Below are positions 9-40,845 of a stretch of DNA of 64,000 bases, piece by piece. The stretch is from NCBI RefSeq assembly GCF_007997225.1, contig NZ_VORM01000009.1, positions 62,001 through 126,000 on the forward strand, given 5' to 3'. Made by a program: the position numbers and the translations under genes. Position 1 is the stretch's first letter. Each line of letters begins with the position of its first letter. The stretch comes from Subsaximicrobium wynnwilliamsii. GTDB taxonomy: Bacteria > Bacteroidota > Bacteroidia > Flavobacteriales > Flavobacteriaceae. The notes below the pieces were generated by a model. It saw nothing but the letters and a program-made list of their open reading frames with translations, ran no database searches and was not told where the DNA came from.

Positions 9-52
9 ACCTCACAGGTTTTTATCCCGATAGCTATCGGGACTGTGAGGTC
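9..52. repeat. Intergenic hairpin repeat, copy 1
   Basis: Outer arms GACCTCACAG (9-18) and CTGTGAGGTC (43-52) are perfect inverted repeats, and they enclose the near-palindrome TCCCGATAGCTATCGGGA. The same element occurs at 2582-2626 and 12571-12615, each time just upstream of a permease start codon. It ends 16 bases before the start of the first permease, which suggests another permease of the same array lies to the left of the window. Confidence 0.85.
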
Positions 53-68
53 TAAGAAAATAAAAATC

Positions 69-2516: not shown

Positions 2517-2626
2517 GCCCCCTCTGCCCATGCGGGCATCTCCCCCAAAAGGGGAGAAAACAGTTGGATGGATTAACAAAAGACCTCACAGGTTTTCATC
2601 CCGATAGCTATCGGGACTGTGAGGTC
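2517..2626. repeat. Permease junction 1: GC-rich repeat plus hairpin copy 2
   Basis: Two repeats lie side by side. A GC-rich element (2517-2562, containing GCCCATGCGGGCATC and CCCCAAAAGGGG) also occurs at 5068-5113 and, diverged, at 12504-12550. The hairpin with GACCTCACAG arms follows at 2582-2626. The downstream permease starts 18 bases later. The elements are non-coding and may act as processing or termination structures within the operon. Confidence 0.85.
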
Positions 2627-2643
2627 TCTAAAAACAGAAAATT

Positions 2644-5067: not shown

Positions 5068-5113
5068 GCCCCCTCTGCCCATGCGGGCATCTCCCCCAAG
5101 AGGGGAGAAAACG
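5068..5113. repeat. Permease junction 2: GC-rich repeat without the hairpin
   Basis: This is the same GC-rich element as 2517-2562, followed by the same AACAAAAGAC lead-in, but the 45-base hairpin present at the matching position in junctions 1 and 5 is absent. The sequence passes directly from AAAAGAC to ACAATT and the start codon. This is what a precise loss, or a missing insertion, of the hairpin unit would leave. Confidence 0.8.
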
Positions 5114-5141
5114 GTTGGATGGAATAACAAAAGACACAATT

Positions 5142-7502
5142 ATGATTAGAAATTATATAAAAATCGCGTGGCGGAATCTTTGGAAAAACAAAGGGTATTC
5201 ATTCATCAATATTTTTGGTCTGGCCATTGGGATTACTTGTGCCAGCCTTATTCTTCTTTGGGTTGAAGATGAGTTGAATTTTGACCAATCCATCCCTGAT
5301 AAAGAATTGGTTTTTGCTATTCCTACCAATCAAAAGTACGATGGCGAATGGCGAACCTTCTTTGAGGCCACTCCAGGACCTTTAGCTTCAGTTTTAAAAT
5401 CTGAAATACCTGAAATTACTAAATCGGCAAGAAAACGAGATGTTGGCCAGTTACTAAGCGTTGGCGAAAAATCTGTAAATAGCGCAGGCAGTTTTGCGGA
5501 TGAAGATTTGATAAACATTTTTGGGCTTAATTTTATCGCAGGAAATTCTAAAGAAGCCTTTAAGGATAAAAAATCGGTTATTCTCACTGAAAAAGCAGCT
5601 TCTGTCTTTTTCGATAAAAGTGAAGATGCCATCGGCAAGAATATTCAATTTGACAAAAAAGACACATATACCATAACAGGTGTTGTTGCAGATTTTCCCG
5701 AAAACACAACCTATACTTTTGATTGGTTGGTTCCTTTTGAAAATTTTACCGACGGTAAAGAATGGACTCAGGGTTACGGTGCTAATTTCACGAACACTTT
5801 TGTGAAATTGGCTCCAGATGTAAATGTTGCGAATGTCAATGAAAAAGTAAAAGCAATATTACCCGCCAAAACAGGAGATGCGGAAACCGAAGCGATTTTG
5901 TTTTCGGCAAACGATTGGCATTTACGCGACAAATTTGTGAATGGTAAAATAGATGGTGGCAGGATTGAGTATGTTCGACTATTCAGTTTCATCGCTCTAA
6001 TTATCTTGGTTATCGCTTGCATTAATTTTATGAACTTATCCACTGCCCGAAGCGAGAAACGTGCAAATGAAGTGGGGATGCGCAAAGCTTTGGGCTCAGG
6101 TAAAAAACAGTTGATTTTTCAGTTTTTAACAGAAGCGGTTATGACAGCTTTCATCAGCGGAATTGTTAGTGTGGCACTCTTAATAGCGCTAATTCCGCAG
6201 TTTAATGCGCTAATTGAAAAAGATCTGAGCTTGGCAATTACAGAGCCAATACATGTTCTTCCAATAGTATTTATTACCCTTTTCTGCGGAATTATTTCCG
6301 GACTTTATCCCGCGTTTTATCTGTCTTCCTTTAAACCTATTGAAGTCTTAAAAGGAAACCGAAGACAATCGGGAAGCGCCTCTTTTACAAGAAAGACATT
6401 GGTAGTAATTCAATTTTCAATATCTATAATTTTTATCATTAGCACCATATTGGTTTATCAACAAGTGCAGCACATAAAAAATCGAAATTTGGGGATTGTA
6501 AAAGAAAACCTCATTGAAATGCCAGCTGCAAACGGCGACATTATCAAAAACTTCAAATCTATTGAGCAAGCGTTGATCTCTTCTGGCTTAGTTGAAAGTG
6601 CAGCCTTGATGAATTCACAAATTTTGTCTGGCGGAAATAATACCTCTGGTGTTGATTGGCAAGGAAAACCATCAGACGCAGATATCTTGATTTCCATTAG
6701 AACAATTACTCCGCAATTTTTTAATACTGCCGGAATGAAAATAAAAGAGGGTAAAGGTTTTGGAACTTCCGAAGACGCAGATAGCACTAAAGTTCTGATA
6801 TCTGAATCTTTTGCAAAACTTATGGACACCGATAATGTTGTAGGAAATAGGATTAATTATAATGGTCAAATATTAACTATTAATGGTGTCGTCAAAGATT
6901 TTTTATACGGCGATATGTATGGCACAAGCGATCCGGTTATGTTTTATCATCAGGCAGAAGAAGCAAATTATATGTATATAAAACCTGCGGCCGGTGCGGC
7001 TATAAATAAAACGCTGACAAAAATAGAAGATGTTCTTAAAACACAAAACCCTGGTTTTCCGTTTGAGTACAGATTTGTAGATGAGGCTTTTAACGAGCGC
7101 TTTAAAAGTGAACAATTGGTGGAGAATCTTTCCCAAATTTTTGCGATGTTGGCGATTATCATTTCTTGCCTGGGGCTTTTTGGGTTATCAGCTTTTACAG
7201 CAGAACAACGCCGGAAGGAAATAGGTGTGCGGAAGGTTTTAGGTTCAAGTGTTTTGGGGATCGTAAAATTGCTATCAAAGGATTTTTTAAAGTTGGTGCT
7301 GCTCTCCATTTTAGTATCCGTTCCTATTTCGTGGTACGTGATGCAAAACTGGCTTCAGGGATTCGCTTACAGAATTGACATAAAATTATGGGTTTTTGCA
7401 ATTGCCGGGTTGTCCGCGGTTTTGATTGCCTTAATAACCGTGAGCTTTCAAGCGGTAAAAGCCGCCATTGCAAACCCAGTAAAAAGCTTAAGAACAGAAT
7501 AA
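5142..7502 (+). CDS. ABC transporter permease, FtsX/MacB type (permease 3)
   Basis: 786 residues from the ATG at 5142, which gives MIRNYIKIAWRN as in its paralogues. The reading frame is open upstream to 4950, but that part overlaps permease 2 and the repeat and is not family-like. Motifs: first FtsX block near residue 283 (ANEVGMRKALGSG), second near 669 (RKEIGVRKVLGSS), ending IANPVKSLRTE. The middle is more AT-rich than in permeases 1 and 4, so the paralogues have diverged apart from their ends. Predicted inner-membrane subunit; substrate unknown. Confidence 0.93.
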   Translation: MIRNYIKIAWRNLWKNKGYSFINIFGLAIGITCASLILLWVEDELNFDQSIPDKELVFAIPTNQKYDGEWRTFFEATPGPLASVLKSEIPEITKSARKRDVGQLLSVGEKSVNSAGSFADEDLINIFGLNFIAGNSKEAFKDKKSVILTEKAASVFFDKSEDAIGKNIQFDKKDTYTITGVVADFPENTTYTFDWLVPFENFTDGKEWTQGYGANFTNTFVKLAPDVNVANVNEKVKAILPAKTGDAETEAILFSANDWHLRDKFVNGKIDGGRIEYVRLFSFIALIILVIACINFMNLSTARSEKRANEVGMRKALGSGKKQLIFQFLTEAVMTAFISGIVSVALLIALIPQFNALIEKDLSLAITEPIHVLPIVFITLFCGIISGLYPAFYLSSFKPIEVLKGNRRQSGSASFTRKTLVVIQFSISIIFIISTILVYQQVQHIKNRNLGIVKENLIEMPAANGDIIKNFKSIEQALISSGLVESAALMNSQILSGGNNTSGVDWQGKPSDADILISIRTITPQFFNTAGMKIKEGKGFGTSEDADSTKVLISESFAKLMDTDNVVGNRINYNGQILTINGVVKDFLYGDMYGTSDPVMFYHQAEEANYMYIKPAAGAAINKTLTKIEDVLKTQNPGFPFEYRFVDEAFNERFKSEQLVENLSQIFAMLAIIISCLGLFGLSAFTAEQRRKEIGVRKVLGSSVLGIVKLLSKDFLKLVLLSILVSVPISWYVMQNWLQGFAYRIDIKLWVFAIAGLSAVLIALITVSFQAVKAAIANPVKSLRTE

Positions 7503-7601
7503 TGGCCCCCTAACCCCTTCTTCCGGCAGTCAGGCCCGAAATGGGAACGATTACTCAGAAATAACTCCCTCTCCTTCGGGAAGGGTTGGGGAGGGGATAA
7601 A
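7503..7601. repeat. Permease junction 3: different GC-rich inverted repeat
   Basis: Arms CCCCCTAACCCCTT and AAGGGTTGGGGAGGGG can pair, and a small inner hairpin CCTTCGGGAAGG lies within. This type is distinct from the elements at the other junctions. It ends about 12 bases before the start codon of permease 4. Confidence 0.75.
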
Positions 7602-7613
7602 AAACACAATGTT

Positions 7614-10013
7614 ATGATTAGAAACTATTTTAAAATCGCTTGGCGAAACATACTTGCCAACAAACTCTTTACCCTGCTCAACATTGCAGGTTTGGCGATT
7701 GGCGTATGCGTTTGCGTCATTCTGTTTTCTTTTGTGAATAAAGAACTGAGCTACGACAAGATGTATTCAAATTCAGAAGACATTTATCGGGTCAATATGG
7801 AGACTTCGGAAGCCTACGATTATGAAACTTGGGCGACCATGCCAAATGCTGTTGGTCCCGCAATTGTGGCGGAAATTCCGCAGGTTGAAACGATGACCCG
7901 GCTTATCAAGGATGATTTTGGGGCAACCGCCTCCCTCAAGATCGGCGATAAGAATTATACAGAAGACGGACTCTACCTCGCCGATGCTTCACTCTTTAAA
8001 ATGTTCGATTTTAAATTTCTGCAAGGGAACAGTGAAACGGCTTTCTCAGAGCCGAAATCCATCGTGCTGTCAATGTCGGCTAAAGAAAAATTATTTGGCG
8101 CAAAAGAAGCAATGCACAAATTGATCACTGTAAATAACAGCGATACGTTGCAGGTTTCGGGTATTTATGCGGACCTGCCCAAAAACAGTGTGATGGATTG
8201 CGCCATGGTCTATAATATCATGGATTCTTGGATGGGTACTAATGTTTATTGGAGCAATGCCAGTTATGAAACCTACGTGCAACTGCAACCAAATGCCGAT
8301 GTTGCCGAAATCGAAAAGCGAGCCACGGCATTAATAGATAAAAATGTGGACAAGGACGGACAGTATTTCACAAAGTTCATTTTTCAACCATTAACAAAAA
8401 TACACCTCTATTCGGCAGATGTTAGGGAAGGTTATTCTACCAAGCTTGGCAATATAACGACTATTAAAAGTCTTATGTTCCTTTCATTACTCGTACTTTT
8501 TATAGCCTGTATCAACTATATGAACCTCGCCACGGCAAATTCCCGAAAACGCGCCAAAGGCATTGGAGTCAACAAAGTTTTGGGTGCAAACAGGCGACAA
8601 ATGCTTTTCCTCTTTTATGTGGAAACCGGTATTCTTGTCCTAGTTTCCATCATTGTGGGTTATGCAGCCTCCTTCTTGACGCTGCCTTTGTTTCAAAATG
8701 TGACAAGCAGTGAACTTGCTTTTTCAGATTTATTGGCAGCACCTATTTTAGTTGGTCTATTGCTTATTTGGATTGTGGTCACGATCATTGCTGGTAGTTA
8801 TCCGGCCATTGCTATGTCTGGAATCTCGCCACTTATCTTGGTCAATAAATCAAAGAAGAAAAATTCGGCTTCAGAATATGTGCGCAAAGGCCTTGTGGTA
8901 TTTCAGTTTGCAGCTTCCATCGTATTGATCATTGCGGTCACGATCATCCTTCAGCAAATGGCATTTATAAAAAATAAAAATCTAGGTTACGATCCTAACG
9001 GCATTATTGCTATTTCGGTTAAATCTGCTGAAAATCAGCAACAGATCGATGCTTTTACCAAGGCCGTTGAGAAACACAGTAATGTTGAGAGCGTATCGGC
9101 CGTTCAAGCCATGCCGGGTGTAGGAGAAAGTGGCCGTTCGGTTCAAAAATTAGTAACCGATAATGTTGGTTTGCCCATAGCAAGTTGCCGCACCAACGGT
9201 AAGGTCGTTAAAACCTTGAAATTGAATTTACTCGCTGGTAACGAGCTTCCAGAACACATAGCCGAAGGAGATTCCATAATCTACACCTTGATCAACGAAA
9301 AAATCCTGAGCTACCTCGATTATAAAACTGCGGAAGATGCCGTAGGTAAAATCATCAATACCGAACTTGGTTCAAGGGCGATAATTACTGGCGTTGTTAA
9401 AAACTTCAATTTCAGCTCGCTCAAGGAAGATGTTGGAGGTTATATGTATTACAAATCGAGTAGCGCACCAGAAGGCATCCGAACCCTTTTGGTACGCTAT
9501 AACACCCAAAAATTGCCCCAGTTTATGGGTCAGCTGGAAAAAACCTTTAATGAGAATCTGCCCAATACGGCATTCGATTATCAATTTGTCGATAGGCACG
9601 TGGCGCAGTTATATGCTTCCGAAGAAAAAACAGCGAGTACTGCAACGATTTTTTCTGCTTTGGCCATTTTTATTGCTTGCCTTGGTCTTTTTGGTCTGGC
9701 CGCGTTTATGGCAGAACAGCGCACCAAGGAAATTGGCGTACGTAAGGTCTTGGGCGCAACAGTTGCCAACCTCACGAAATTATTGACGAAAGATTTTTTA
9801 AAACTGGTGCTGGTTGCTTTTGTGATCGCCGCACCCATTGCGTATTGGCTCATGAACAAATGGTTGCTTGATTTTGCATACCGAACAGAAATGAGTTGGT
9901 GGGTGTTCGCTTTGGCAGGATTGGCAGCGGTTTTAATTGCATTGATAACGGTAAGCTTTCAGGCCATAAAAGCGGCGATTGCAAATCCTGTGAAGAGTTT
10001 GAGGACGGAGTGA
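7614..10013 (+). CDS. ABC transporter permease, FtsX/MacB type (permease 4)
   Basis: 799 residues, starting MIRNYFKIAWRN. FtsX block 1 lies near residue 287 (AKGIGVNKVLGAN) and block 2 near 682 (TKEIGVRKVLGAT), ending IANPVKSLRTE. The first block carries GVNK where the others have GIRK or GVRK, a small departure in a strongly conserved cytoplasmic loop. The DNA from about 9965 through the stop codon and the following leader is nearly the same as 14983-15067 at the end of permease 6. Role as for the other permeases. Confidence 0.93.
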   Translation: MIRNYFKIAWRNILANKLFTLLNIAGLAIGVCVCVILFSFVNKELSYDKMYSNSEDIYRVNMETSEAYDYETWATMPNAVGPAIVAEIPQVETMTRLIKDDFGATASLKIGDKNYTEDGLYLADASLFKMFDFKFLQGNSETAFSEPKSIVLSMSAKEKLFGAKEAMHKLITVNNSDTLQVSGIYADLPKNSVMDCAMVYNIMDSWMGTNVYWSNASYETYVQLQPNADVAEIEKRATALIDKNVDKDGQYFTKFIFQPLTKIHLYSADVREGYSTKLGNITTIKSLMFLSLLVLFIACINYMNLATANSRKRAKGIGVNKVLGANRRQMLFLFYVETGILVLVSIIVGYAASFLTLPLFQNVTSSELAFSDLLAAPILVGLLLIWIVVTIIAGSYPAIAMSGISPLILVNKSKKKNSASEYVRKGLVVFQFAASIVLIIAVTIILQQMAFIKNKNLGYDPNGIIAISVKSAENQQQIDAFTKAVEKHSNVESVSAVQAMPGVGESGRSVQKLVTDNVGLPIASCRTNGKVVKTLKLNLLAGNELPEHIAEGDSIIYTLINEKILSYLDYKTAEDAVGKIINTELGSRAIITGVVKNFNFSSLKEDVGGYMYYKSSSAPEGIRTLLVRYNTQKLPQFMGQLEKTFNENLPNTAFDYQFVDRHVAQLYASEEKTASTATIFSALAIFIACLGLFGLAAFMAEQRTKEIGVRKVLGATVANLTKLLTKDFLKLVLVAFVIAAPIAYWLMNKWLLDFAYRTEMSWWVFALAGLAAVLIALITVSFQAIKAAIANPVKSLRTE

Positions 10014-10073
10014 AAAAAGTATGCAGTTTCAGTCACAGTATTCAGTAAAATAATTAAAATTAACATTTTCAAA
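10014..10073 (+). repeat. Permease junction 4 leader, duplicated after permease 6
   Basis: The leader beginning AAAAAAGTATGCAGTTTCAG recurs after permease 6 at 15031-15089 with a few substitutions. Here it leads into the intact start of permease 5; there it leads into the stub of a seventh permease. The shared block extends back into the coding ends of permeases 4 and 6. Confidence 0.8.
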
Positions 10074-12503
10074 ATGATACGAAACCACTTTAAGATTGCG
10101 CTGCGGTATTTGTTCAAGAACAAATTATACTCCATCCTCAATATCGTTGGGCTGGCCTTGGGGATTGCGGCATTTGTGATCATCACACTTTATGTGGGTT
10201 ACGAGCGCAGTTACGATAAATTTGAAGGTTCAGATGAGGTGTTTCGGGTGTATATGGATTATGCTGAAGGTGGAAACTTTGTACCTGGCGATGCGCAGAC
10301 CTATAACCTTAGCGGTCCGACCTTGAAAAAAGAATTTCCCGAGATCATCGAGCAGGTAAGATTGTACCGTTTGGAAAAAGTGACCTTCGTCAATGGCGAA
10401 AAAATTATCCAGCAACCCAATGGCTCATTGGCAGATGCGAGTTATTTCAAGATTTTTGATCATCCGCTAATCGAAGGCAATCTCAGCGATTTTGAAAAGC
10501 CAAACACCATAATTCTCACAAAAACCTTGGCGAAAAAGCTCTTTGGAAAAAAACAGGTTTTGGGCAAAAGTCTGGAAGTGTTTGATGGGAATGGCATACG
10601 CTTGGAAATTGTTGGGATTATCAACGATATTGCGCAAAACACACATTATAAAACGAATTTTTTGATATCCTACCCAACCATGAATACTTGGGATATGGGA
10701 AATAATGCCAAACCCAATTGGAGCGGCAATAACTTTTTTACCTATCTGAAGGTTGCTCCTGGAATTGATAAAATAGCGCTTCGGAAAAAAATAATGATGA
10801 GCGATTTTGAACAAGATCCAGATGAAAGACACAATATCGAGGCGATTTCAGACATCCATTTGCATTCAGATAAACCATTTGAAGCCGAAACTAACGGAAG
10901 CTTAAGTCGGGTTCGGTTTCTTTCAGCAATTGGCTTTATCATTCTTATTCTGTCCTGGCTGAATTATGTCAACCTCGCCACAGCAAAATCGATGGAACGC
11001 TCCAAGGAGGTTGGCATACGTAAAGTAGCTGGCGCGCAAAGATCACAATTGATAGTTCAGTCTTTGGGGGAATCGTTATTGCTCAATCTGTTTGCTGTAG
11101 CACTGGCCATTGGGTTGGCGTATGTATTGCTTCCTTTATTCAATAATTTTGTTGGCAAAGAGCTCGTTTTGGGGCTTTCAAATTTAGGCATCATCTTGCC
11201 TTATCTTGCATTTATTCTTTTGGGCACTTTAGTCTCGGGACTTTATCCGGCGATGGTCATTAGTGGTTTTTCGCCCATTCGCGCTTTAAAAGGAAAAGTT
11301 GTTGCCTCTCGTGGCGGAGTCAACATTCGCAAGGGATTGATAGGGGTGCAGTTTTTCGCTACTGTCGTTTTGATTATTGGCACCTTGGTCGTATCGCAAC
11401 AGATCAGTTTTTTAGGGGAACAACCACTTGGCGTTGATCTTTCTCAATTAGTAGCGCTTAAGGGCGAATTGCTGTCGAATGAAAATGATTCTATTACACG
11501 CCAGAAATCTGTAGTGTTGGAGTCCGAATTATCCCAATTACCATTCGTTAAGGGCGTAACCCAAGCTAAAACCTACCCCGGTGATGGTTATGATAATTTA
11601 TCTTCTAATGTTGGAATTACTTATCCCGATGGAACAAGCAATGAACGTCTGTTGTTTTATTTGTATGGCGCGCAGCCCAATTATTTTGAGGTTTTAGGTA
11701 TCGATTTTTTGGCAGGAAAAACCTATCTGCGGAAGAATCCTGGGGTTCACAATTTCGATATCGTGATCAACGAAACATTTGCCAGAATCATGGGGTTCAC
11801 TGATATGTCTGAGATTATCGGAAAAAACGTAAAATTTTGGGACGAGACTTGGACGGTTACTGGTGTTTTTGAAGACTACCACCATTTCGGTTTGAAAAGC
11901 AAGATAGAGCCTATGTTCATTGGCGATATCAATTGGGCTTTTGGTACTGGTCTGCAGAATGTTTTGGTCAAGATGGATGCTACTGGACTTTCATTATCGG
12001 TTATGGATAAAAATCTGGATCAGATTCAGCAAAAATGGAAGACTATTTTTCCGCAGAGCACTCTGGACTATACCTTTCTCGATAAAAAATTTGAAGCACA
12101 ATATAAAGAGGATACTAAGTTTGGAGCAGCATTTCAGTTGTTTACGGGTTTGGCGATTTTCATAGCAGGATTGGGGCTTTTCGGACTCACATCTTACACT
12201 ATTTTACAGCGCAAAAAGGAAATTGGCATCAGAAAAGTGAGCGGTGCATCAGTCCTACAAATTCTGACCTTGCTCAACAGGGATTTTCTCAAATTGGTGA
12301 CCATCTCCTTTATTTTGGCGGCACCGATAGCTTGGTATGTGATGAACCAATGGTTGCAGGAATTTGCCTATCAAACCAGATTGAATTGGTGGGTTTTTGC
12401 GCTCGCTGGGATTGCAGCTTTTTTAGTGGCGATAATTTCGGTAAGTTTTCAGGCCATAAAAGCGGCCATTGCAAATCCTGTGAAGAGCTTGAGAACGGAG
12501 TAA
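10074..12503 (+). CDS. ABC transporter permease, FtsX/MacB type (permease 5)
   Basis: 809 residues, starting MIRNHFKIALRY, slightly divergent from the MIRNYFKIAWRN of its neighbours. The FtsX blocks lie near residues 282 (SKEVGIRKVAGAQ) and 692 (KKEIGIRKVSGAS). It ends with the shared IANPVKSLRTE. It is an inner-membrane protein with the usual two large periplasmic domains and four membrane helices per half. It is followed by a diverged copy of the GC-rich repeat and the third hairpin copy. Substrate unknown. Confidence 0.92.
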   Translation: MIRNHFKIALRYLFKNKLYSILNIVGLALGIAAFVIITLYVGYERSYDKFEGSDEVFRVYMDYAEGGNFVPGDAQTYNLSGPTLKKEFPEIIEQVRLYRLEKVTFVNGEKIIQQPNGSLADASYFKIFDHPLIEGNLSDFEKPNTIILTKTLAKKLFGKKQVLGKSLEVFDGNGIRLEIVGIINDIAQNTHYKTNFLISYPTMNTWDMGNNAKPNWSGNNFFTYLKVAPGIDKIALRKKIMMSDFEQDPDERHNIEAISDIHLHSDKPFEAETNGSLSRVRFLSAIGFIILILSWLNYVNLATAKSMERSKEVGIRKVAGAQRSQLIVQSLGESLLLNLFAVALAIGLAYVLLPLFNNFVGKELVLGLSNLGIILPYLAFILLGTLVSGLYPAMVISGFSPIRALKGKVVASRGGVNIRKGLIGVQFFATVVLIIGTLVVSQQISFLGEQPLGVDLSQLVALKGELLSNENDSITRQKSVVLESELSQLPFVKGVTQAKTYPGDGYDNLSSNVGITYPDGTSNERLLFYLYGAQPNYFEVLGIDFLAGKTYLRKNPGVHNFDIVINETFARIMGFTDMSEIIGKNVKFWDETWTVTGVFEDYHHFGLKSKIEPMFIGDINWAFGTGLQNVLVKMDATGLSLSVMDKNLDQIQQKWKTIFPQSTLDYTFLDKKFEAQYKEDTKFGAAFQLFTGLAIFIAGLGLFGLTSYTILQRKKEIGIRKVSGASVLQILTLLNRDFLKLVTISFILAAPIAWYVMNQWLQEFAYQTRLNWWVFALAGIAAFLVAIISVSFQAIKAAIANPVKSLRTE

Positions 12504-12615
12504 TGGCCTCCTCTGGTTATGCGGGCATCTCCCCCAAGAGGGGAGAAAACAAGTGGGTGGATTAACAAAAGACCTAACAGGTTTTCATCCCGATAGCTAT
12601 CGGGACTGTGAGGTC
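12504..12615. repeat. Permease junction 5: GC-rich repeat plus hairpin copy 3
   Basis: A diverged copy of the GC-rich element (12504-12550) is followed by the hairpin (12571-12615). The left arm is GACCTAACAG and the right arm CTGTGAGGTC, so one base pair of the outer stem is lost, while the inner TCCCGATAGCTATCGGGA is intact. The start codon of permease 6 follows 15 bases later. Confidence 0.85.
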
Positions 12616-12630
12616 TAAAAACATAAAATT

Positions 12631-15030
12631 ATGATTAGAAACTATATTAAAATCGCGTTCCGTAACCTTAAAAAGAACAAGGTGTATTCGTTTATCAACA
12701 TCTTCGGGTTGGCGCTAGGGCTTGCGGTAACGATGATTATTGGGCTATGGATTGTAGATGAGTTCAACTATAATGATCATTTCGAAAGTAAAGATCAGAT
12801 TGCACAGGTCATGCAAAACCAGACTATTAATGGGTCTGTTGAAACTAATGAAGGGCTTCCGTTAGCATTAGAATTTCAATTACGAGATCATTTTGGCGAT
12901 GCGTTTGAGTCTATCGTCATGTCATCAAGACCTGATGAACGTTACCTAAGTTTAAAAGACAAAGTCATCTCTAGCAGTGGACGTTTTATGCAAGTTGATG
13001 CCCCAGACTTATTGGAGCTTGATATGCTTGAAGGCACCAGAAAAGGACTAAAGGAAACTAATGCTATTCTTCTATCTGAAACTACGGCTCAAACACTTTT
13101 TGGAAGTGAAAGTCCATTGGGGAAATCTATTGTCTCAGACAATGAACACACCATGGTCGTAACCGGTATTTATAAGGATATCTACAAAAATAATAGCTTT
13201 AACGGCATGCATTTTATAATGCCTTTTAAACATTGGATGTCCACGCGGTGGGGTTGGCTTGAAAATCAAGACTCTAATTGGAGTTATAATCCATTTTTCA
13301 TTTACGTAAAGTTTTCAGAAAACGCAGATTTGGCCGCGGTAAATGCTCGAATTGTAAACCTAAAGAAAGATAACCTTCCAGTCGGGGATGTTTTTAATTC
13401 GCAGTTATTTCTCTTCCCAATGGCAGATTGGTATTTACATTCCAATTTTGAAAATGGGAAACAAGTTGGTGGACGTATTGAAAACGTCTGGTTATTTGGT
13501 ATCATCGGATTGTTCGTTTTGCTTCTTGCTAGTATTAATTTTATGAATCTGAGTACCGCAAGGTCAGAAAAACGTGCACTCGAAGTTGGTATTAGGAAAT
13601 CTATCGGCTCGACAAGAAGACAACTGATATATCAATTTTTGAGCGAATCTTTTTTAGTGGTTTTAGTCGCATTTATACTCGCAATTGGGCTTGTGCTAGT
13701 ATCACTTCCCGCATTCAATACCATAGCAGGAAAGGACGTCATCTTTCCGTGGTCAAGTAGTCTATTTTGGATGGTATCTTTAGGGTTTATAGGTTTTACA
13801 GCATTGGTTTCTGGTAGCTATCCCGCATTATACCTATCGTCATTCAAACCCATAAAAGTGTTGAAAGGTACTTTTAAAATGGGCAAGTTTGCTGCGCTGC
13901 CAAGAAAGGTGCTTGTGGTAACCCAGTTTACAGTCTCCATAGCACTTATTATTGGGACGCTGATTGTAAAGGATCAAATTGATTATAGTAAAAATAGGCC
14001 GGTAGGTATCAACAGTGCTCAATTGATCCAGCTACCGACCTCGAGTCAAGATTTTTCAGGAAAGTATGACCTCATTCGCAACGCGTTTTTAAGTTCTGGC
14101 TCTGTGGCCAAAATGGGTTGGGGTACCAGCCCGGCGACAAGTATTTGGAACTATTCTTCTGGATTTGAGTGGGACGGTAAGCCTGTTGATTTTAATGAAA
14201 GTTTTGCGCAAATGGCTATTTCTTTTGATTACATAGATGCTGTAGGCATGAAAATAATAGAAGGTCGTTCTTTTTCGCGTGACTTTGCGACAGATTCAAA
14301 TGCGGTTGTTTTAAACAAAACTGCTGTTGACTATATGGGTATTAAGAACCCTGTAGGAAAATACATTCGTGGGACTGCGGCAGGTCCTAACGATGTCCCA
14401 ATGCAGATTGTGGGTGTGGTGGAAGATGTGATCAATGAGTCCGCTTACGAACCTGTTTCACCTCAAATGTATCAATTTGGTCATGGTACTGGCGGCTTTT
14501 ATTATTTGAGGCTTAATCCCAATCAGGCAACCAGCAAAAGTTTAGCTTCCGTAGAAAAAATATTCAAAACAAATTTTCCCAACCTGCCTTTTAGCTATGA
14601 TTTTGTGGATGAGGAATATGCGCAAACCTTTGCTGCGGAAGAGCGTATCGCTAGCCTTGCCAAAGTATTTACGTTGTTGGCGATTTTGATCAGTTGTCTC
14701 GGTCTATTTGGGTTAGCCTCTTTTATGGCCGAGCAACGAAAAAAGGAAATAGGCGTTCGAAAGGTATTAGGAGCAACGGTCACTAATTTATGGCTGCTGC
14801 TTTCAAAGGACTTTATCCTTCTGATCGCAATTTCCATCTGTATAGCCGCACCACTTGCTTACTATTTTATGAGTGATTGGATTGAGAAGTTTTTTTACAG
14901 AACCGATATTTCAATAGGCGTATTCTTGATTGCCGGATTGGGCGCCTTATTGTTGACCGTGATTACAGTTAGTTTCCAAGCGATAAAAGCGGCGATTGCA
15001 AATCCTGTGAAGAGTTTGAGGACGGAATGA
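12631..15030 (+). CDS. ABC transporter permease, FtsX/MacB type (permease 6)
   Basis: 799 residues, starting MIRNYIKIAFRN. FtsX block 1 lies near residue 290 (ALEVGIRKSIGST) and block 2 near 685 (KKEIGVRKVLGAT), ending IANPVKSLRTE. It is the last intact permease of the array. The next gene start on this strand is a stub of a seventh permease, and the ATPase that would serve the array begins about 1.25 kb downstream. Predicted inner-membrane subunit of an efflux-type ABC system; substrate unknown. Confidence 0.93.
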   Translation: MIRNYIKIAFRNLKKNKVYSFINIFGLALGLAVTMIIGLWIVDEFNYNDHFESKDQIAQVMQNQTINGSVETNEGLPLALEFQLRDHFGDAFESIVMSSRPDERYLSLKDKVISSSGRFMQVDAPDLLELDMLEGTRKGLKETNAILLSETTAQTLFGSESPLGKSIVSDNEHTMVVTGIYKDIYKNNSFNGMHFIMPFKHWMSTRWGWLENQDSNWSYNPFFIYVKFSENADLAAVNARIVNLKKDNLPVGDVFNSQLFLFPMADWYLHSNFENGKQVGGRIENVWLFGIIGLFVLLLASINFMNLSTARSEKRALEVGIRKSIGSTRRQLIYQFLSESFLVVLVAFILAIGLVLVSLPAFNTIAGKDVIFPWSSSLFWMVSLGFIGFTALVSGSYPALYLSSFKPIKVLKGTFKMGKFAALPRKVLVVTQFTVSIALIIGTLIVKDQIDYSKNRPVGINSAQLIQLPTSSQDFSGKYDLIRNAFLSSGSVAKMGWGTSPATSIWNYSSGFEWDGKPVDFNESFAQMAISFDYIDAVGMKIIEGRSFSRDFATDSNAVVLNKTAVDYMGIKNPVGKYIRGTAAGPNDVPMQIVGVVEDVINESAYEPVSPQMYQFGHGTGGFYYLRLNPNQATSKSLASVEKIFKTNFPNLPFSYDFVDEEYAQTFAAEERIASLAKVFTLLAILISCLGLFGLASFMAEQRKKEIGVRKVLGATVTNLWLLLSKDFILLIAISICIAAPLAYYFMSDWIEKFFYRTDISIGVFLIAGLGALLLTVITVSFQAIKAAIANPVKSLRTE

Positions 15031-34578: not shown

Positions 34579-34662
34579 ATATCGCAATATGCGATATTAT
34601 AGTTATGAATTTTAATATATAACAAAAATTAGCTTATTATTACATATCGCAATACGCAATAT
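34579..34662. promoter_or_regulatory. Two operator-like palindromes upstream of the HTH gene
   Basis: The first site, ATATCGCAATATGCGATAT (34579-34597), is a perfect palindrome with 8-base arms. The second, ATATCGCAATACGCAATAT (34644-34662), differs at two positions and covers the HTH start codon. The centres are 65 bases apart, allowing looping or cooperative binding. I infer autoregulation by the HTH protein. Confidence 0.7.
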
Positions 34663-35173
34663 GATGAAAAGCAATAACACTTTAAAACCACAGGATATTT
34701 TAATTCTCTTAAAAATATGCACTTTAGAAAAGCAAAAATGGTTTCAACATACACTTGCAGAAGATTTAAATATTAGCCAGTCCGAAATCTCCGAATGCTT
34801 ATCAAGATCAAAATATTCAGGATTAATAGATGCAAGTCGCAAGCGAGTGAACCTGCTCAATTTGTTAGAGTTTTTACAATATGGAATTAAATATGTTTTT
34901 CCACAACAACCTGGTGCTCTTGTAAGAGGTATTGCAACTGCTCATTCGGCACCACCATTGAATAATAAAATACAAAGTGACCAGAATTATGTTTGGCCTT
35001 ACGCTAGGGGCAATATGCGTGGGCAAGCTATTCAGCCATTGTATAAATCCGTGCCCAAAGCGGTATTAAACGATCAAAATTTACACGAGATTTTAGCGCT
35101 AGTAGATGCCATTAGAGTGGGTAAAGTACGAGAACAAAATTTAGCTATTTCACTTTTGAAAGAAAGATTGTAA
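34661..35173 (+). CDS. Winged-helix/HTH regulator of the helicase cassette
   Basis: 170 residues. The N-terminal helix-turn-helix (about residues 8-65) includes WFQHTLAEDLNISQSEISECLSRSKYSGL. The C-terminal part (VWPYARGNMRGQAIQPLY, then ILALVDAIRVGKVREQNLAI) resembles, from memory, a family of small regulators often paired with toxin or defence genes. The start codon lies inside the second operator-like palindrome, so it probably represses its own operon. The 50-residue gene starts 1 base after its stop, then the giant helicase gene. Confidence 0.8.
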   Translation: MMKSNNTLKPQDILILLKICTLEKQKWFQHTLAEDLNISQSEISECLSRSKYSGLIDASRKRVNLLNLLEFLQYGIKYVFPQQPGALVRGIATAHSAPPLNNKIQSDQNYVWPYARGNMRGQAIQPLYKSVPKAVLNDQNLHEILALVDAIRVGKVREQNLAISLLKERL

Positions 35174-35174
35174 C

Positions 35175-35327
35175 ATGAATAATGATACCCAAACCGTCGT
35201 AATTATAAGTATCTATGCTCGAGATGAAGGTGCAGAATTATCAAGAGTATCAACCGATGTTGATATATATGGACAGGTTTCGAGTATTGGAGAAATGGAA
35301 ACATTACAGCGTATCAATCAATTATGA
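35175..35327 (+). CDS. Small conserved-position ORF in the helicase cassette
   Basis: 50 residues, starting MNNDTQTVVIISIYARDEGA. It begins 1 base after the HTH gene stop and its TGA overlaps the helicase ATG (ATGATGA), so translation of the three genes looks coupled. It is acidic and has no recognised domain, with one beta-strand-like stretch (TVVIISIY). It could be a small cofactor or a leader. It is supported by its tight spacing, not by homology. Confidence 0.6.
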   Translation: MNNDTQTVVIISIYARDEGAELSRVSTDVDIYGQVSSIGEMETLQRINQL

Positions 35328-38300
35328 TGAATAAAGTTCTATATATAGACATTGAGACTACCAAACAAGGAAAAATAAAGGATATTGGCGCTCTTTTTAA
35401 TGGACAAGAATTACATGAAAGTCAATTTACGAAACTTAAAAGTTGGATACACCAAGCAGAATATATCTGCGGTCATAATATAGTTGCACACGACATTCCT
35501 TTATTGGAAAGGGTACTAGGAAATGACATTTTTAAACATAAAAAGATAGTTGATACACTATTATGGTCCACACTATTATTTTGTGATAATCCTTACCATA
35601 AACTTGTAAAAGGGTATAAAATCGTTAACGATAGTGATTATAACAACCCCTTATCAGATTGCAAATTAACAAGGCAATTATTAATAGATGAACTCAATAG
35701 ATTCAAGGAATTAGAAGAAAATGTACAGCAAATTTATGTCAGATTACTTACTGGATCTGATGCGTATTCGGGTTTTTTAGAGTTGATTGATTTTCAGATG
35801 AGCAATCTAGATGCTGCTACTGAAATAGTAAATTTATTTAAAAGTAAAATTTGCGATAGCTCCAATATTTTTCAATTAGTAAAAGAATATCCTATTGAAT
35901 TAGCTTATGCTTTTTCATTAATAAATACCAAAGAAGATAAATCTGTTTTAGCTTATTGGGTTAGTAACACACTTCCTAAAACACAAGAGATATTAGATAA
36001 TGTTAGATTTAAATTTTGTGGTAAAGAAACTTGCACTTATTGTAATTCATATCTAAACCCTAAAAAAGCTTTACAAAGCTATTTTGGATATGAAGATTTT
36101 AGAAGCTTTGATCCTAATGAAGACATAAGTTTGCAAGAAAAAACTGTTCGGGCCGGCTTGAGTGCAAGATCCTTTGTGGCTGTTTTTCCCACAGGAGGAG
36201 GTAAGTCACTTACGTTTCAGTTACCAGCTTTAATGAAAGGCTCTCTGTCTCGTCAACTAACAGTTGTTATCTCTCCCTTGGTGTCGTTAATGAAAGATCA
36301 AGTTGAGAACCTTGAAAACCGTTTTGATATCACAAAGGCAGCAGCTATAAACGGGTTATTATCTCCTCTAGAAAGGCAAGATGCCATTGAAAGGGTGGAG
36401 AAAGGAGGAGTCCAACTTTTATACCTGTCTCCTGAGTCTTTGCGCTCGCCAACGATATTAAGAATTTTAAAACAGCGTTCAATAGCAAGGTTTGTTATAG
36501 ATGAAGCGCATTGCTTTTCGTCTTGGGGACAAGATTTTAGAGTAGATTATTTATTTATTGCTGACTTTATTTTGAGTCTTGAAGAAGAAAGACCATTTGG
36601 GAAAATACCTGTGTCTTGTTTTACAGCAACTGCGAAGCCACAAGTAATTGAAGACATTAAAAAATATTTTAAAATAAAGCTCAACATTGAATTAGATGAG
36701 TACGTCACTAGGGCTACTAGAACTAATCTAAAATATGAGGTCATTGAAATCAAGGATTCAGACCACAAGATGAATACATTATTATCAGTGTTGGAAAATT
36801 GTGAAAAGCCTGTGATTATTTATGCCTCAAGAACTAAAAGAGTTGAAGAAATACATGGCTTAATACAGAAAGCGGGATTAAGTTCTACTTATTTTCACGG
36901 ACGATTGGATAAAGAAGTAAAGAAAGATAACATGGATTCTTTCATGCATAATGAAAAGGACATTATTGTGGCTACCTCTGCTTTTGGGATGGGAGTTGAT
37001 AAGGATGATGTAAAATCTGTAATCCATTATAACATATCCGATTCTTTAGAGAATTACGTGCAAGAAGCCGGGCGGGCTGGTAGAGATGAAAAAATTCAAG
37101 CTAAATGCTATATTCTATTTAATGAGCAAGATTTAAGCAAGCACTTTAGTTTATTGCAACAGACCAAAATAAATCAAAAAGAGATTCAACAAATATGGCA
37201 AGCACTCAAGAATTTATCAAAATATAGAAAAGAAAAAAAAATAAGTAATTCCGCTTTAGAAATAGCACAAAAAGCAGGATGGGATACTGAAATTCAAGAG
37301 CTGGAAACTAGAGTTAAGACTTCTATTGCTGCTCTAGAAGATCAAGGCTTCTTAAAACGAAGATTAAATTCTCCCATGGTCTTTGCAGATAGTTTGTTGG
37401 TGCCTAACTTATCCAAAGCTTTAAAAATAATTAATCAAAGCAAAAATATTACTGAAATTCAAGTTCAAAATTGCTCAAGAATTCTACAGCGAATAGTTAA
37501 AGATGATGAATGCAGAATTGATTATTTAGCAGATAGAACTGGACTAAGGCTAAAAGAAATTAGAGATGTCATTGAATTATTAAGAGAGCTTAAGATTTTG
37601 GGCGATGCCAAAGATTTAACGGCATTTATTAACCTAACCCAATCAGCAAAAAGCTCAAGAAAGACTTTAGATCGGTATCGGAAAATTGAAACTGCAATGC
37701 ACCAGATTTTAACTGGAGACATTAAAATATCGATGCGACAACTAAATCAAAATATTAATGATTTAGATGTTAAATCAGAAATACATGAACTGAGGAACAT
37801 TCTTAATTATTGGGAACTGAGAAATTTTATCCAAAAAAAGCGTGTTGATAGAGAGAATGACTTATACCAAATAAAAATAAAGCACTATGATTCATTAAAT
37901 GAGGATATTAAATGGAGACACGAGTTGACATTAGATGTTTATGAGCTTCTTGAAAAATTCTATTTAAAGCAAAAAGAAAATCGAGATTCTCAAGATAAAA
38001 AGGACTTACCTGTAAGTTTTTCAATGTTAGAACTTAAAAACTCTAATCAACTATTCGGACAAATAAAAGAAGAAGACATTAAACGTTATGAGAAAACGTT
38101 ACTCTTTCTAAATCAGATCAAATCAATAAAACTAGAAGGTGGTTTTATGGTGTCCTATAATAGATTGAACATTGAAGATATTGATAGGTCACTCCCAAGG
38201 TTTACACTAGAGAATTTCAATAAAATGAGTCAACATTATCTTCATAAAACGGAACAGATTCATATTGTTGGTGAATATGCTAAACGAAGACTTAAAAACT

Positions 38301-40138
38301 ACGAATCTGCTTTAGCCTATGTCAATGATTATTTTAGTCAACCTTATGAAGAGTTTTTGGCTAAATATTTTCCGAGACGTAAAATGGAAATCAGTAGGCC
38401 GGTTACTCCTGAACGGTTTAAGAAAATCGCAGGAGAATTAGATATTGATCAGCGAAGTATTGTTGACGATAATAAATCAGATAACATACTGGTTCTTGCA
38501 GGTCCCGGGAGTGGCAAAACCAAGGTGCTTGTTCATAAGATTGCTAGTTTATTATTATTGGAAGATATTAAACCGGAGCAATTTTTAATGCTTACGTTTT
38601 CAAAAGCTGCTTCTCTAGAATTTAGAGCAAGAGCAAGAGAACTCGTTCCAGAATACACTGGGCTTATTAAAATCACAACCTTTCATGGCTTCTGTTTTCA
38701 ACTATTGGGGCAGCTAGGAGACTTGAAAAAATCAGAAAACGTCATTCAAGATTGTATTACGGCAATTAACAACAAGGAAGTTGATATCTCATCTATAATC
38801 AATAAAAGTGTATTGCTCCTCGATGAATTTCAAGATGTAAATGCCGTTGAATGGAAACTGGTACAAACCATAATAAATAAAGCTAAAAACATCAGAGTTA
38901 TTGCTGTTGGTGATGACGATCAAAACATATATGGTTTTAGAGGGTCCTCAAATAAAAATATGTTAGAATTTAGAGAGAAATACAATGCGACATCCTATGC
39001 ATTAATCAAAAATTATAGAAGTAGTTCGCACATTGTTCATTTTAATAATGCATTGCTTAAAAAAATACCAAACCGATTAAAAACACAAGCGCTAGAACCT
39101 ATTGATAAAACATTGAAATCCAATATTAAATTAATTAGGTACAACACTTCTTATCTAGAAAAATCCTTAGCAGAGAAAGTAATTCAAGATAATTACGTTG
39201 GCACAAGAGCTATACTGGTCAGGACTAATAAACAAGCTTTAATGCTCAATACATTCTTAAAAGAATTTGGACAAAAAACGAAGCTTATTACGGGACTTGA
39301 AGGCTTTAGTTTAGATCACTTATTTGAGCTAAGAACGTTCACAGATCATCTAAAACTGAACACAAATGATGCTGGTTTAATTTTCAATACTGAATGGGCT
39401 GATGCCAAAAATCATTTTGTATCAAAACACGATTCGAGCAGCCATCTTGATATTTGTTTAAAGCTTATTCAAAAATTTGAATTGAATTATAATAAGCAGA
39501 AACAATTAATAGATTGGTACGACTATATTCGTGAAATAAAAATGGAAGATGCCATTGATCCTGATTCCAAAGCAATTATAATTGCAACCCTGCATAAATC
39601 CAAAGGAAAAGAATTTGATCATGTGTACCTGCTCTTAGAAGACTATGATTTTGCCAAGACAGAATCTAAACGTGTGCTATATGTAGGCTGTTCTAGAGCA
39701 AAATTAAGTTTACAGTTACATTGTAACTCCTCCTTTTTTGATGAATTTGATACTAATAGTCTATCGGTAACCAAATTTGAAGGAACTACAGAGCAACCTA
39801 AACATTTTGAAGTAATACTAGGGCACAAAGACATATATTTAGGCTCTCAAAAATATTCTAAAACAGTAAATAGAATCAATACTTTAAAATCCGGGGATCA
39901 ACTTATAAATGATTCCGTGCAGTTTACAGATAATATCGCAATAGGATGCGCTAAACAAGATGGAGGGAATGTGCTACTATTTTCTAGAGATTTTATGGCT
40001 AAAAAGCACGACACTTTTATTAAGGACGGTTATCAACTAGCCAATGGAAGTGTCGCCTATTTAGTGTATTGGTTTGATGCTAAAGAAGGGAAAGAATATA
40101 AAGTGGTCTTGCCTAAGTTGATGTTTGAAAAAAGATAA
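35324..40138 (+). CDS. DEDD exonuclease-RecQ-UvrD fusion helicase
   Basis: 1604-residue multi-domain protein. Residues 1-130 are a DEDD 3'-5' exonuclease (DIE at 9-11, GHNIVAHD at 50-57, SDCKLT near 112). A CxxxxCxxC motif (FCGKETCTYC) lies near 232-241. A RecQ-type SF2 helicase spans about 260-640 (TGGGKSLTFQ near 288, DEAHCFSSWGQD near 392, QEAGRAGRD near 582). A linker follows over about 640-1030. A UvrD/Rep SF1 helicase spans about 1045-1470 (AGPGSGKTK near 1060, LLDEFQDVN near 1165, GDDDQNIYGFRG near 1200, LHKSKGKEFDH near 1425). A small beta-rich C-terminal domain ends it. The nuclease and two helicase motors suggest DNA processing, possibly antiphage defence. It is AT-rich and overlaps the small ORF. 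Confidence 0.9.
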   Translation: MMNKVLYIDIETTKQGKIKDIGALFNGQELHESQFTKLKSWIHQAEYICGHNIVAHDIPLLERVLGNDIFKHKKIVDTLLWSTLLFCDNPYHKLVKGYKIVNDSDYNNPLSDCKLTRQLLIDELNRFKELEENVQQIYVRLLTGSDAYSGFLELIDFQMSNLDAATEIVNLFKSKICDSSNIFQLVKEYPIELAYAFSLINTKEDKSVLAYWVSNTLPKTQEILDNVRFKFCGKETCTYCNSYLNPKKALQSYFGYEDFRSFDPNEDISLQEKTVRAGLSARSFVAVFPTGGGKSLTFQLPALMKGSLSRQLTVVISPLVSLMKDQVENLENRFDITKAAAINGLLSPLERQDAIERVEKGGVQLLYLSPESLRSPTILRILKQRSIARFVIDEAHCFSSWGQDFRVDYLFIADFILSLEEERPFGKIPVSCFTATAKPQVIEDIKKYFKIKLNIELDEYVTRATRTNLKYEVIEIKDSDHKMNTLLSVLENCEKPVIIYASRTKRVEEIHGLIQKAGLSSTYFHGRLDKEVKKDNMDSFMHNEKDIIVATSAFGMGVDKDDVKSVIHYNISDSLENYVQEAGRAGRDEKIQAKCYILFNEQDLSKHFSLLQQTKINQKEIQQIWQALKNLSKYRKEKKISNSALEIAQKAGWDTEIQELETRVKTSIAALEDQGFLKRRLNSPMVFADSLLVPNLSKALKIINQSKNITEIQVQNCSRILQRIVKDDECRIDYLADRTGLRLKEIRDVIELLRELKILGDAKDLTAFINLTQSAKSSRKTLDRYRKIETAMHQILTGDIKISMRQLNQNINDLDVKSEIHELRNILNYWELRNFIQKKRVDRENDLYQIKIKHYDSLNEDIKWRHELTLDVYELLEKFYLKQKENRDSQDKKDLPVSFSMLELKNSNQLFGQIKEEDIKRYEKTLLFLNQIKSIKLEGGFMVSYNRLNIEDIDRSLPRFTLENFNKMSQHYLHKTEQIHIVGEYAKRRLKNYESALAYVNDYFSQPYEEFLAKYFPRRKMEISRPVTPERFKKIAGELDIDQRSIVDDNKSDNILVLAGPGSGKTKVLVHKIASLLLLEDIKPEQFLMLTFSKAASLEFRARARELVPEYTGLIKITTFHGFCFQLLGQLGDLKKSENVIQDCITAINNKEVDISSIINKSVLLLDEFQDVNAVEWKLVQTIINKAKNIRVIAVGDDDQNIYGFRGSSNKNMLEFREKYNATSYALIKNYRSSSHIVHFNNALLKKIPNRLKTQALEPIDKTLKSNIKLIRYNTSYLEKSLAEKVIQDNYVGTRAILVRTNKQALMLNTFLKEFGQKTKLITGLEGFSLDHLFELRTFTDHLKLNTNDAGLIFNTEWADAKNHFVSKHDSSSHLDICLKLIQKFELNYNKQKQLIDWYDYIREIKMEDAIDPDSKAIIIATLHKSKGKEFDHVYLLLEDYDFAKTESKRVLYVGCSRAKLSLQLHCNSSFFDEFDTNSLSVTKFEGTTEQPKHFEVILGHKDIYLGSQKYSKTVNRINTLKSGDQLINDSVQFTDNIAIGCAKQDGGNVLLFSRDFMAKKHDTFIKDGYQLANGSVAYLVYWFDAKEGKEYKVVLPKLMFEKR

Positions 40139-40261
40139 AATCATGCTTACATAATGTTTTTTTTCAAAGGTTAAAAAGGACGAGAAGATAGTCTTGTATA
40201 AACGAAGAGGTATTTTTTAGTGTAAAAATGATGCGTCTTATGTTAGTTTTATTTTTCTATT

Positions 40262-40659
40262 ATGAGGTTGCCGTCCACTTTAAACGCACGCCTTGGTAAT
40301 GATGTTAGCCATAATTATTCACAAATATGGCTTAGTTCAGATGCGCTTCATGAAAAAGGAGTACAGTTTGGTTTAGAATCGTTTTCGGGTAAAGGAAATA
40401 CAGGAGGAAGGATGTTTGTAGGTGTTTTAGATAAGCAGCGAGAATATGATGCTATAGTAGATGGAGATAGGCGCTTAAACTCTTCTTGGCCAATTATACG
40501 AGATCTCAAAACAACAGAAGCTAATCCATTAAATTTGTCGAGTACAGCTATTTTAGGAAAATTGAGAACGAAACTGATTATTTTGAGGCTATGGTAGATA
40601 CGATAGTAGAACAAACCCAAGATTTTATAGTAAGTTATCACGACTATTGTTCTAATTAA
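40262..40659 (+). pseudogene. Frameshifted hypothetical gene remnant
   Basis: The first part (40262 to about 40563) reads MRLPSTLNARLGNDVSHNY through FGLESFSGKGNTGGRMF and RLNSSWPIIRDLKT. At an AAAA run near 40558 the frame changes, and the +2 frame continues ENETDYFEAMVDTIVEQTQ to a TAA at 40657-40659. Adding one A to the run would restore one protein of about 132 residues. I do not recognise the family. It follows the helicase gene by about 120 bases. Confidence 0.5.
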
Positions 40660-40845
40660 CAAAGTGCTTTGCATATTTAAAAGCCTTCGGTAAAAACGAT
40701 CGGGATAAAATGAATTTCTGGTAACGTACTTGCCTAGATTCGAGATGGCGTTACAACCAGCTATTAAGAAATTGAGATAAGTGATTATATTTATGAAATA
40801 ATATAATGAATTGGTTTAATAAAACGCTTTATGTTAATTGTCATA

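What the first reader, a model, noticed from the sequence alone, without database searches (positions are those of the whole stretch)
34579..40138. Operator-HTH-small ORF-exonuclease/RecQ/UvrD cassette, a candidate defence system
One compact unit carries two matching operator palindromes, an HTH gene, a 50-residue ORF and a 1604-residue protein. The protein joins a DEDD nuclease, a CxxxxCxxC site, a RecQ-type SF2 helicase and a UvrD-type SF1 helicase. The genes touch or overlap (1-base gap, then ATGATGA). Two helicase motors of different superfamilies with a nuclease in one chain is unusual. The unit is AT-rich and lies in an island with a TAC operon and fic debris, all typical of defence islands. 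It matches no defence system I can name, but similar fusions may already be annotated simply as RecQ-family helicases.
Basis: partly seen in the sequence, partly recalled or inferred. Interest (0 to 1): 0.85.

Follow-up and report, generated by a model that had tools for sequence, protein, structure and literature searches.

The report
Mobile exonuclease-RecQ-UvrD gene behind captured operator
A large bacterial enzyme that joins a DNA-trimming domain to two DNA-unwinding motors has dropped, as one bare gene, behind the control switch of a broken toxin pair; it may be an unnamed single-gene defence against foreign DNA, while its two small neighbours are not part of it.

Summary
The features are real, but the "cassette" is two unrelated things side by side. 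(1) Operators and HTH gene belong to a two-gene AbiE-like pair. The HTH protein matches PADLOC PDC-M21A (E 2.6e-53); in 40 of 47 evaluable relatives a full-size nucleotidyltransferase follows. The 50-residue ORF is a deleted, truncated remnant of that gene (24.8 bits; best of 2000 shuffles 5.9). (2) The 1604-residue protein is a stand-alone mobile gene: DNA similarity to its closest relatives starts and stops at the ORF, and 0 of 80 fetched relatives show the HTH gene, nucleotidyltransferase or small ORF. It is accessory: 13 of 395 genomes of its order, own included. A predicted DEDD exonuclease fold, four cysteines, RecQ and UvrD keep the key residues examined in 75-76 of 76 sequences. McrC lies close by in 5 of 92 loci, about 0.03 expected; most nearest neighbours are ordinary. 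I think it most likely works like Hna, Nhi or Gabija, attacking foreign or damaged DNA (about 0.6); accessory repair is the main rival. Here it may have inherited the pair's operator control.

The parts
34579..34597 (.). operator-like inverted repeat 1 (8-bp arms, 3-nt centre); belongs to the HTH/AbiEii-like module
   Evidence: the same 19-mer stands upstream of the HTH gene in L055 and similar paired sites in L049, L050, L051
34644..34662 (.). operator-like inverted repeat 2, overlapping the HTH start codon
   Evidence: two-site layout in L049, L050, L051, L055
34661..35173 (+). HTH regulator, antitoxin-like partner of an AbiEii-type nucleotidyltransferase (PADLOC PDC-M21A)
   Evidence: E 2.6e-53; family context
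35175..35327 (+). 50-codon remnant of the nucleotidyltransferase gene; the GG motif and about the last 160 profile positions are missing, so not expected to be an active enzyme
35324..40138 (+). 1604-aa DEDD-RecQ-UvrD fusion; a stand-alone mobile gene
35324..35803 (+). DEDD-type 3'-5' exonuclease fold, predicted (D9, E11, D57, D112; Asn107/Asn108 at the usual His/Tyr place)
36017..36043 (+). C232-x4-C237-x2-C240, with Cys177 an invariant four-cysteine set (Zn or Fe-S, not known which)
36065..37231 (+). RecQ-type SF2 helicase core
37232..38446 (+). linker region, largely helical in the model with low confidence in parts; no family match over a curated cut-off
38447..39733 (+). UvrD/Rep-type SF1 helicase
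39746..40135 (+). C-terminal beta-rich domain, confident model (pLDDT near 90), no Pfam match; not searched alone by fold

Best explanation
The 1604-residue protein is a mobile single-gene DNA-processing enzyme. Most likely it is an immune effector that works like Hna, Nhi, Gabija or Hachiman: its RecQ and UvrD motors engage unusual DNA (ends, forks, gaps or single-stranded DNA made during phage or plasmid replication) and the N-terminal DEDD domain degrades a strand 3' to 5'. In this genome the bare gene landed immediately behind the HTH gene of an AbiE-like pair, in place of most of the nucleotidyltransferase toxin, so the pair's operators and repressor probably now control it. Shown by computation: domain make-up, invariant catalytic residues, single-gene mobility, toxin remnant, operators belonging to the HTH module. 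Inferred: exonuclease activity, substrate, defence role, capture of regulation.
Against: By Pfam the nearest neighbours are mostly ordinary genes (25 of 188 families shown). The 62 PADLOC families may come from a few helicase-type proteins, since the tool gives no count of members with a hit. The control regions come from nine Flavobacteriales genomes, the loci from wider taxa. The usual His/Tyr of the last DEDD motif is Asn, so nuclease activity is unproven. No Foldseek hit for the N-terminus reached E 0.001 (best 4.5e-3). RecQ, UvrD and DEDD enzymes are also classic repair enzymes. That the HTH protein still represses the chimeric operon is untested.
Confidence: 0.6

Rival explanations
1. 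An accessory repair or recombination enzyme, a bacterial counterpart of WRN (exonuclease plus RecQ) with an added UvrD motor, that spreads horizontally because it helps with DNA damage or stalled forks, not because it stops phages.
For: The RecQ part matches RecQ, BLM and WRN structures; the N-terminal fold is closest to exonuclease-bearing DinG, a stress-related enzyme; most nearest neighbours are ordinary; as far as I can name ORFs by eye, several relatives lie between housekeeping genes.
Against: Very patchy within orders, found on plasmids, over-represented near McrBC.
Confidence: 0.3
2. One reading: a dedicated operator-HTH-small ORF-fusion defence cassette whose three genes belong together.
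For: The genes touch or overlap in this window and all have low GC, 0.33-0.35.
Against: 0 of 80 relatives show the HTH gene, nucleotidyltransferase or small ORF, though 7 of the 80 hold under 450 bp upstream; 0 of 90 have an exact operator arm within 400 bp upstream; the HTH gene has its own partner in 40 of 47 loci and the fusion in none of 50; the 50-aa ORF is a remnant.
Confidence: 0.03
3. A helper gene of plasmids or integrative elements (replication, establishment or transfer) rather than a host defence.
For: 26 plasmid records, 8 of them mobilizable and 4 conjugative; plasmid-type genes near the Bacteroides finegoldii copy and RadC-type genes in a few loci.
Against: No transfer or replication family recurs among the neighbour clusters printed for 92 loci; the moving unit is the bare ORF. 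How many of the loci are chromosomal was not determined.
Confidence: 0.07

Closest known systems
Hna (helicase-nuclease abortive infection)
   Same: Single-gene fusion of a helicase with a nuclease; Hna is a 3'-5' ssDNA exonuclease stimulated by a phage SSB (PMC13381803, abstract and introduction read).
   Different: Hna has an N-terminal SF2 helicase and a C-terminal PD-(D/E)XK nuclease; here a DEDD-like domain comes first, followed by two helicases of different superfamilies.
Gabija (GajA-GajB), Hachiman, Nhi
   Same: Nuclease-helicase immunity; the UvrD part matches GajB models and the GajB chain of 8sm3.
   Different: Gabija and Hachiman are two-protein systems (passages of PMC10952713, and recall for Gabija; Hachiman abstract in a search listing); Nhi is a single gene (passages of PMC12904381) but, from recall, not a RecQ-UvrD fusion.
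DpdF and PsyrT/RqlH (RecQ-like proteins of defence or toxin-antitoxin systems)
   Same: RecQ core; DpdF models and PsyrT are the best PADLOC matches, over about residues 244-638.
   Different: Only the RecQ part aligns; RqlH has a phosphoribosyltransferase domain (PMC4670107 abstract), which no Pfam match shows here.
ExoDinG and WRN
   Same: DEDD exonuclease fused ahead of an SF2 helicase; S. aureus DinG is the best structural match (passages of PMC11981726).
   Different: No UvrD part; DinG's helicase is not RecQ-type; WRN is eukaryotic (recalled).
AbiE (AbiEi/AbiEii) type IV toxin-antitoxin; PADLOC candidate PDC-M21
   Same: HTH gene overlapping an AbiEii-family nucleotidyltransferase, paired operators.
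   Different: In the window the nucleotidyltransferase is only a 50-codon remnant and a mobile helicase-nuclease gene follows instead.

Membership tests
Hna | N-terminal SF2 helicase followed by a C-terminal PD-(D/E)XK nuclease, one gene | tested here: not met
   The SF2 core starts at residue 248 behind a DEDD-like domain and is followed by an SF1 helicase; no Pfam nuclease match. The last 130 residues were not searched alone by fold
Gabija | GajA nuclease gene next to a UvrD-like GajB | tested here: not met
   The UvrD part matches GajB, but none of the seven other window ORFs scanned matches GajA
DpdF / Dpd system | DpdF match over the curated cut-off, with other dpd genes | tested here: not met
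   244.8 bits against a 550-bit NCBIfam cut-off; no other dpd match among the window ORFs scanned
housekeeping RecQ (TIGR01389) | score over the equivalog cut-off | tested here: not met
   327.4 bits against 640.2; the genome has three other RecQ-like places at 36-42% identity
RecQ family in the broad sense (TIGR00614) | score over the subfamily cut-off | tested here: met
   279.6 bits against 219.8
DEDD exonuclease superfamily | DnaQ-like fold with four conserved acidic residues | tested here: met
DEDDh / DEDDy subtype | His or Tyr 5 or 4 residues before the last Asp | tested here: not met
   Asn107 in 76 of 76, Asn108 in 74 of 76; the subtype motif is recalled
AbiE-like pair (PDC-M21) in the window | HTH regulator of the PDC-M21A family | tested here: met
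   E 2.6e-53
AbiE-like pair (PDC-M21) in the window | intact AbiEii-type nucleotidyltransferase | tested here: not met
   only a remnant aligning to profile positions 32-68 of 228
anti-phage defence system | demonstrated reduction of phage or plasmid | not testable with these tools
   needs plating assays

The most novel reading that the evidence does not exclude
A widespread, unnamed single-protein immune effector with three engines (a DEDD nuclease carrying Asn in place of the usual His/Tyr, RecQ, UvrD) that moves as a bare gene, now and then beside McrBC, and that in this genome took over the operator-repressor of an AbiE-like pair by replacing its toxin, giving a chimeric operon in which an antitoxin-type repressor now controls a helicase-nuclease.
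Probability: 0.35. Interest if true: 0.78.

Novelty: new variant of a known kind. Interest (0 to 1): 0.55.

Why it matters
Such genes sit in many bacterial genomes; on plasmids they appear under the bland name 'RecQ family ATP-dependent DNA helicase'. If this is a defence effector, it is a new architecture of single-gene helicase-nuclease immunity and a natural test of why a cell would put two motors and a nuclease on one chain. The toxin remnant shows how a toxin-antitoxin control switch might be handed to another effector, and it warns against reading touching genes as one system.

Tried and rejected
Rejected: the 50-aa ORF as a small protein partner; the HTH gene and operators as parts of the fusion's system; a fixed chromosomal site (the largest neighbour cluster, which reads like ABC ATPases, is in 10 of 92 loci); homology of the N-terminus by sequence profile (none above threshold).

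Led nowhere: scan of viral contigs with P0001 alone; search for the rest of the nucleotidyltransferase elsewhere in the window (nothing above 5.6 bits); phage relatives in INPHARED (6 records, all partial matches under DNA-polymerase genes). Literature searches for this fusion listed no paper whose title or abstract start describes it; I looked for the words RecQ and UvrD inside three listed papers and found no such fusion in the passages shown. No bioRxiv library was held and most subscription journals were not searched. PADLOC version 2 shows no full-length model among 25 of 63 rows; later defence catalogues were not available. The PADLOC name of the nucleotidyltransferase was not obtained (one search failed). 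The C-terminal domain was not searched alone by fold.

Rows dropped or not seen: 3 of 50 HTH loci (contig end too near) before the 40-of-47 count; 8 of 58 other HTH matches were not fetched for it; 17 of 92 fusion loci with ORFs under 1500 aa before the residue count. Of 531 reported relatives of the N-terminal domain only the best 80 were kept and read, so the rest may include other exonucleases.

Full report
What is there. The repeats are not chance: 4 matches with up to 3 mismatches in the window, mean 0.00 in 100 shuffles. They lie in a stretch of 32-34% GC between 34 and 44 kb; 1-34 kb and 44-60 kb have 39-46%, and the last 4 kb of the window 32-36%.

The fusion is a stand-alone mobile gene. 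In 395 sampled genomes of the window's order the N-terminal domain is in 13, the own genome included; in the order of Bacteroides ndongoniae it is in 12 of 149, that centre genome included. Of these 80, 69 hold N-terminal, linker and UvrD parts in one ORF. No relative of the HTH protein, of two nucleotidyltransferases or of the 50-aa ORF was found in any of the 80 at E 1e-3; 7 of the 80 hold under 450 bp upstream, so there the test is weak. The 12 loci from the order show no HTH or small-ORF relative and no nucleotidyltransferase. Of 23 named genomes that carry the fusion, 2 have a P0002 relative elsewhere, and G098 has both on different contigs. DNA similarity to Hp32, Psychroserpens, Cellulophaga and Yeosuana covers window 35312-35324 to 40133-40141; apart from one 53-bp match nothing else between 33.5 and 43.5 kb is similar in the 13 close relatives compared. 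A genome of the same genus carries the gene between unrelated genes and keeps the window's left-flank genes on another contig without the island. The family tree (FastTree) follows class in the main but needs extra changes, for example Formosa algae among Marinilabiliaceae and five changes for six clostridial rows; that suggests transfer and does not prove it. N-terminal matches occur in 26 plasmid records, 19 over at least 80% of the query, at 24-38% identity in the rows shown. Of four opened, three have a CDS of 1624-1756 aa named RecQ family helicase (the UvrD part not checked) and one, Sulfurospirillum, has only a 199-aa CDS. Six viral contigs have near-complete N-terminal matches in long ORFs cut by the stretch held. 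dN/dS against four close relatives is 0.05-0.07, with dS at or beyond saturation.

The HTH gene, operators and 50-codon ORF are another module. P0002 matches PADLOC PDC-M21A at 2.6e-53. It occurs in 13 of 395 genomes of the order and 42 of 395 of the class, own included. I fetched 50 of the 58 other matches; 3 ended too near; of the other 47, 40 have a nucleotidyltransferase of 180 aa or more starting between 25 nt before and 1 nt after the HTH stop, 4 have one cut to 53-65 aa, 3 have none; none of the 50 has the fusion. Three of these nucleotidyltransferases were scanned and all match Pfam AbiEii over its cut-off. A profile of seven of them finds window 35160-35324 at 24.4 bits, E 1.6e-6, over profile positions 32-68 of 228; the 50-aa ORF itself scores 24.8 against 5.9 for the best of 2000 shuffles, and the next best place in the window scores 5.6. 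The GG motif, which stands just before position 32 in all seven, and the last 160 positions are missing, so the enzyme should be dead. The operator 19-mer recurs exactly upstream of the HTH gene in L055, and a similar two-site layout stands in L049, L050 and L051; by eye, other HTH loci have different GC-core repeats. 0 of 90 fusion loci have an exact operator arm within 400 bp upstream. In 6 of the 50 HTH loci an HsdR-like gene is near, and in L058 the nucleotidyltransferase is again cut, to 58 aa, in front of a 988-aa HsdR-like gene, a parallel to the window.

Is the fusion a defence gene? For: McrC is close by in 5 of 92 loci (L066, L068, L070, L108, L120) in different orders and strands, with an McrB-like gene beside it. 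These are blastp clusters; the L070 gene was checked by itself with Pfam, and two members of the neighbour set, which includes the L070 and L108 genes, matched McrBC. At 21 McrC matches in 196 genomes and an assumed 4 Mb per genome, 0.03 are expected in 1.11 Mb of flanks. The 140 nearest neighbours match 62 PADLOC families at E 1e-15, 140 control ORFs match 4. Among ten neighbours that I picked by eye, GmrSD (L061), DUF4062 (L022) and an HsdR-like gene (L134) were confirmed besides the McrC and McrB-like genes, while others were a DUF3732 protein, a WYL regulator, a UvrD-type helicase, an ordinary biosynthetic enzyme (L064) or had no match. A type I restriction system stands beside the Allochromatium plasmid copy. 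Against: by Pfam the nearest neighbours are mostly ordinary, the PADLOC count may rest on few proteins, and the control comes from nine Flavobacteriales genomes only. I therefore put defence at about 0.6 and accessory repair at 0.3.

Mechanism, inferred. RecQ and UvrD both move 3' to 5' (recalled), so on the two strands of one fork or gap they would move apart, unlike RecBCD's two motors of opposite polarity. A 3'-5' trimming domain could then remove the strand being unwound. Relatives in function, Hna (PMC13381803, abstract and introduction) and Gabija (PMC12407980, abstract), act on single strands or ends exposed during phage infection; the same kind of trigger is the simplest guess here. 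In this genome the gene sits where the toxin of the AbiE-like pair should be, with an ATGA overlap that could couple translation, so the HTH protein may now repress the fusion.

What is new. The parts are known, and public records name such proteins 'RecQ family ATP-dependent DNA helicase'. The three-part fusion has no full-length model among the PADLOC rows seen, and no paper describing it turned up in the searches named under Tried and rejected. I call it a new variant of helicase-nuclease effectors, not a new kind.

Noticed in passing
L058:262-3394 (and L050, L051, L198, L202, L222): The HTH/AbiEii-like pair is followed by an HsdR-like gene; in L058 the nucleotidyltransferase is internally deleted to 58 aa, like the window's 50-aa remnant.
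   Followed up: partly
L053, L197, L209: Further loci where the nucleotidyltransferase is cut to 53-65 aa while the HTH gene is intact.
   Followed up: no
window 40262-40597 and 40727-40779: A match to part of PADLOC PDC-S26, and a 53-bp match to the 3' end of a GmrSD gene that lies upstream of the fusion in Cellulophaga, L061.
   Followed up: partly
   Followed up: partly
L066, L068, L070, L108, L120: McrBC close to the fusion in three layouts: downstream on the same strand, upstream on the same strand, or downstream on the opposite strand.
   Followed up: partly
L073:9992-10840 and L074:2527-3375: Only an ORF of 282 residues for the N-terminal part of the fusion, in two MAGs with similar flanking ORFs.
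   Followed up: no
window 45-15030: Six tandem genes of about 800 aa for FtsX/MacB-like permeases, named from reading the sequence only.
   Followed up: no
L244-L249: IMG/VR viral contigs that encode the fusion's N-terminal domain in long ORFs cut by the stretch held; L247 lies next to ORFs that read like serine recombinases.
   Followed up: partly
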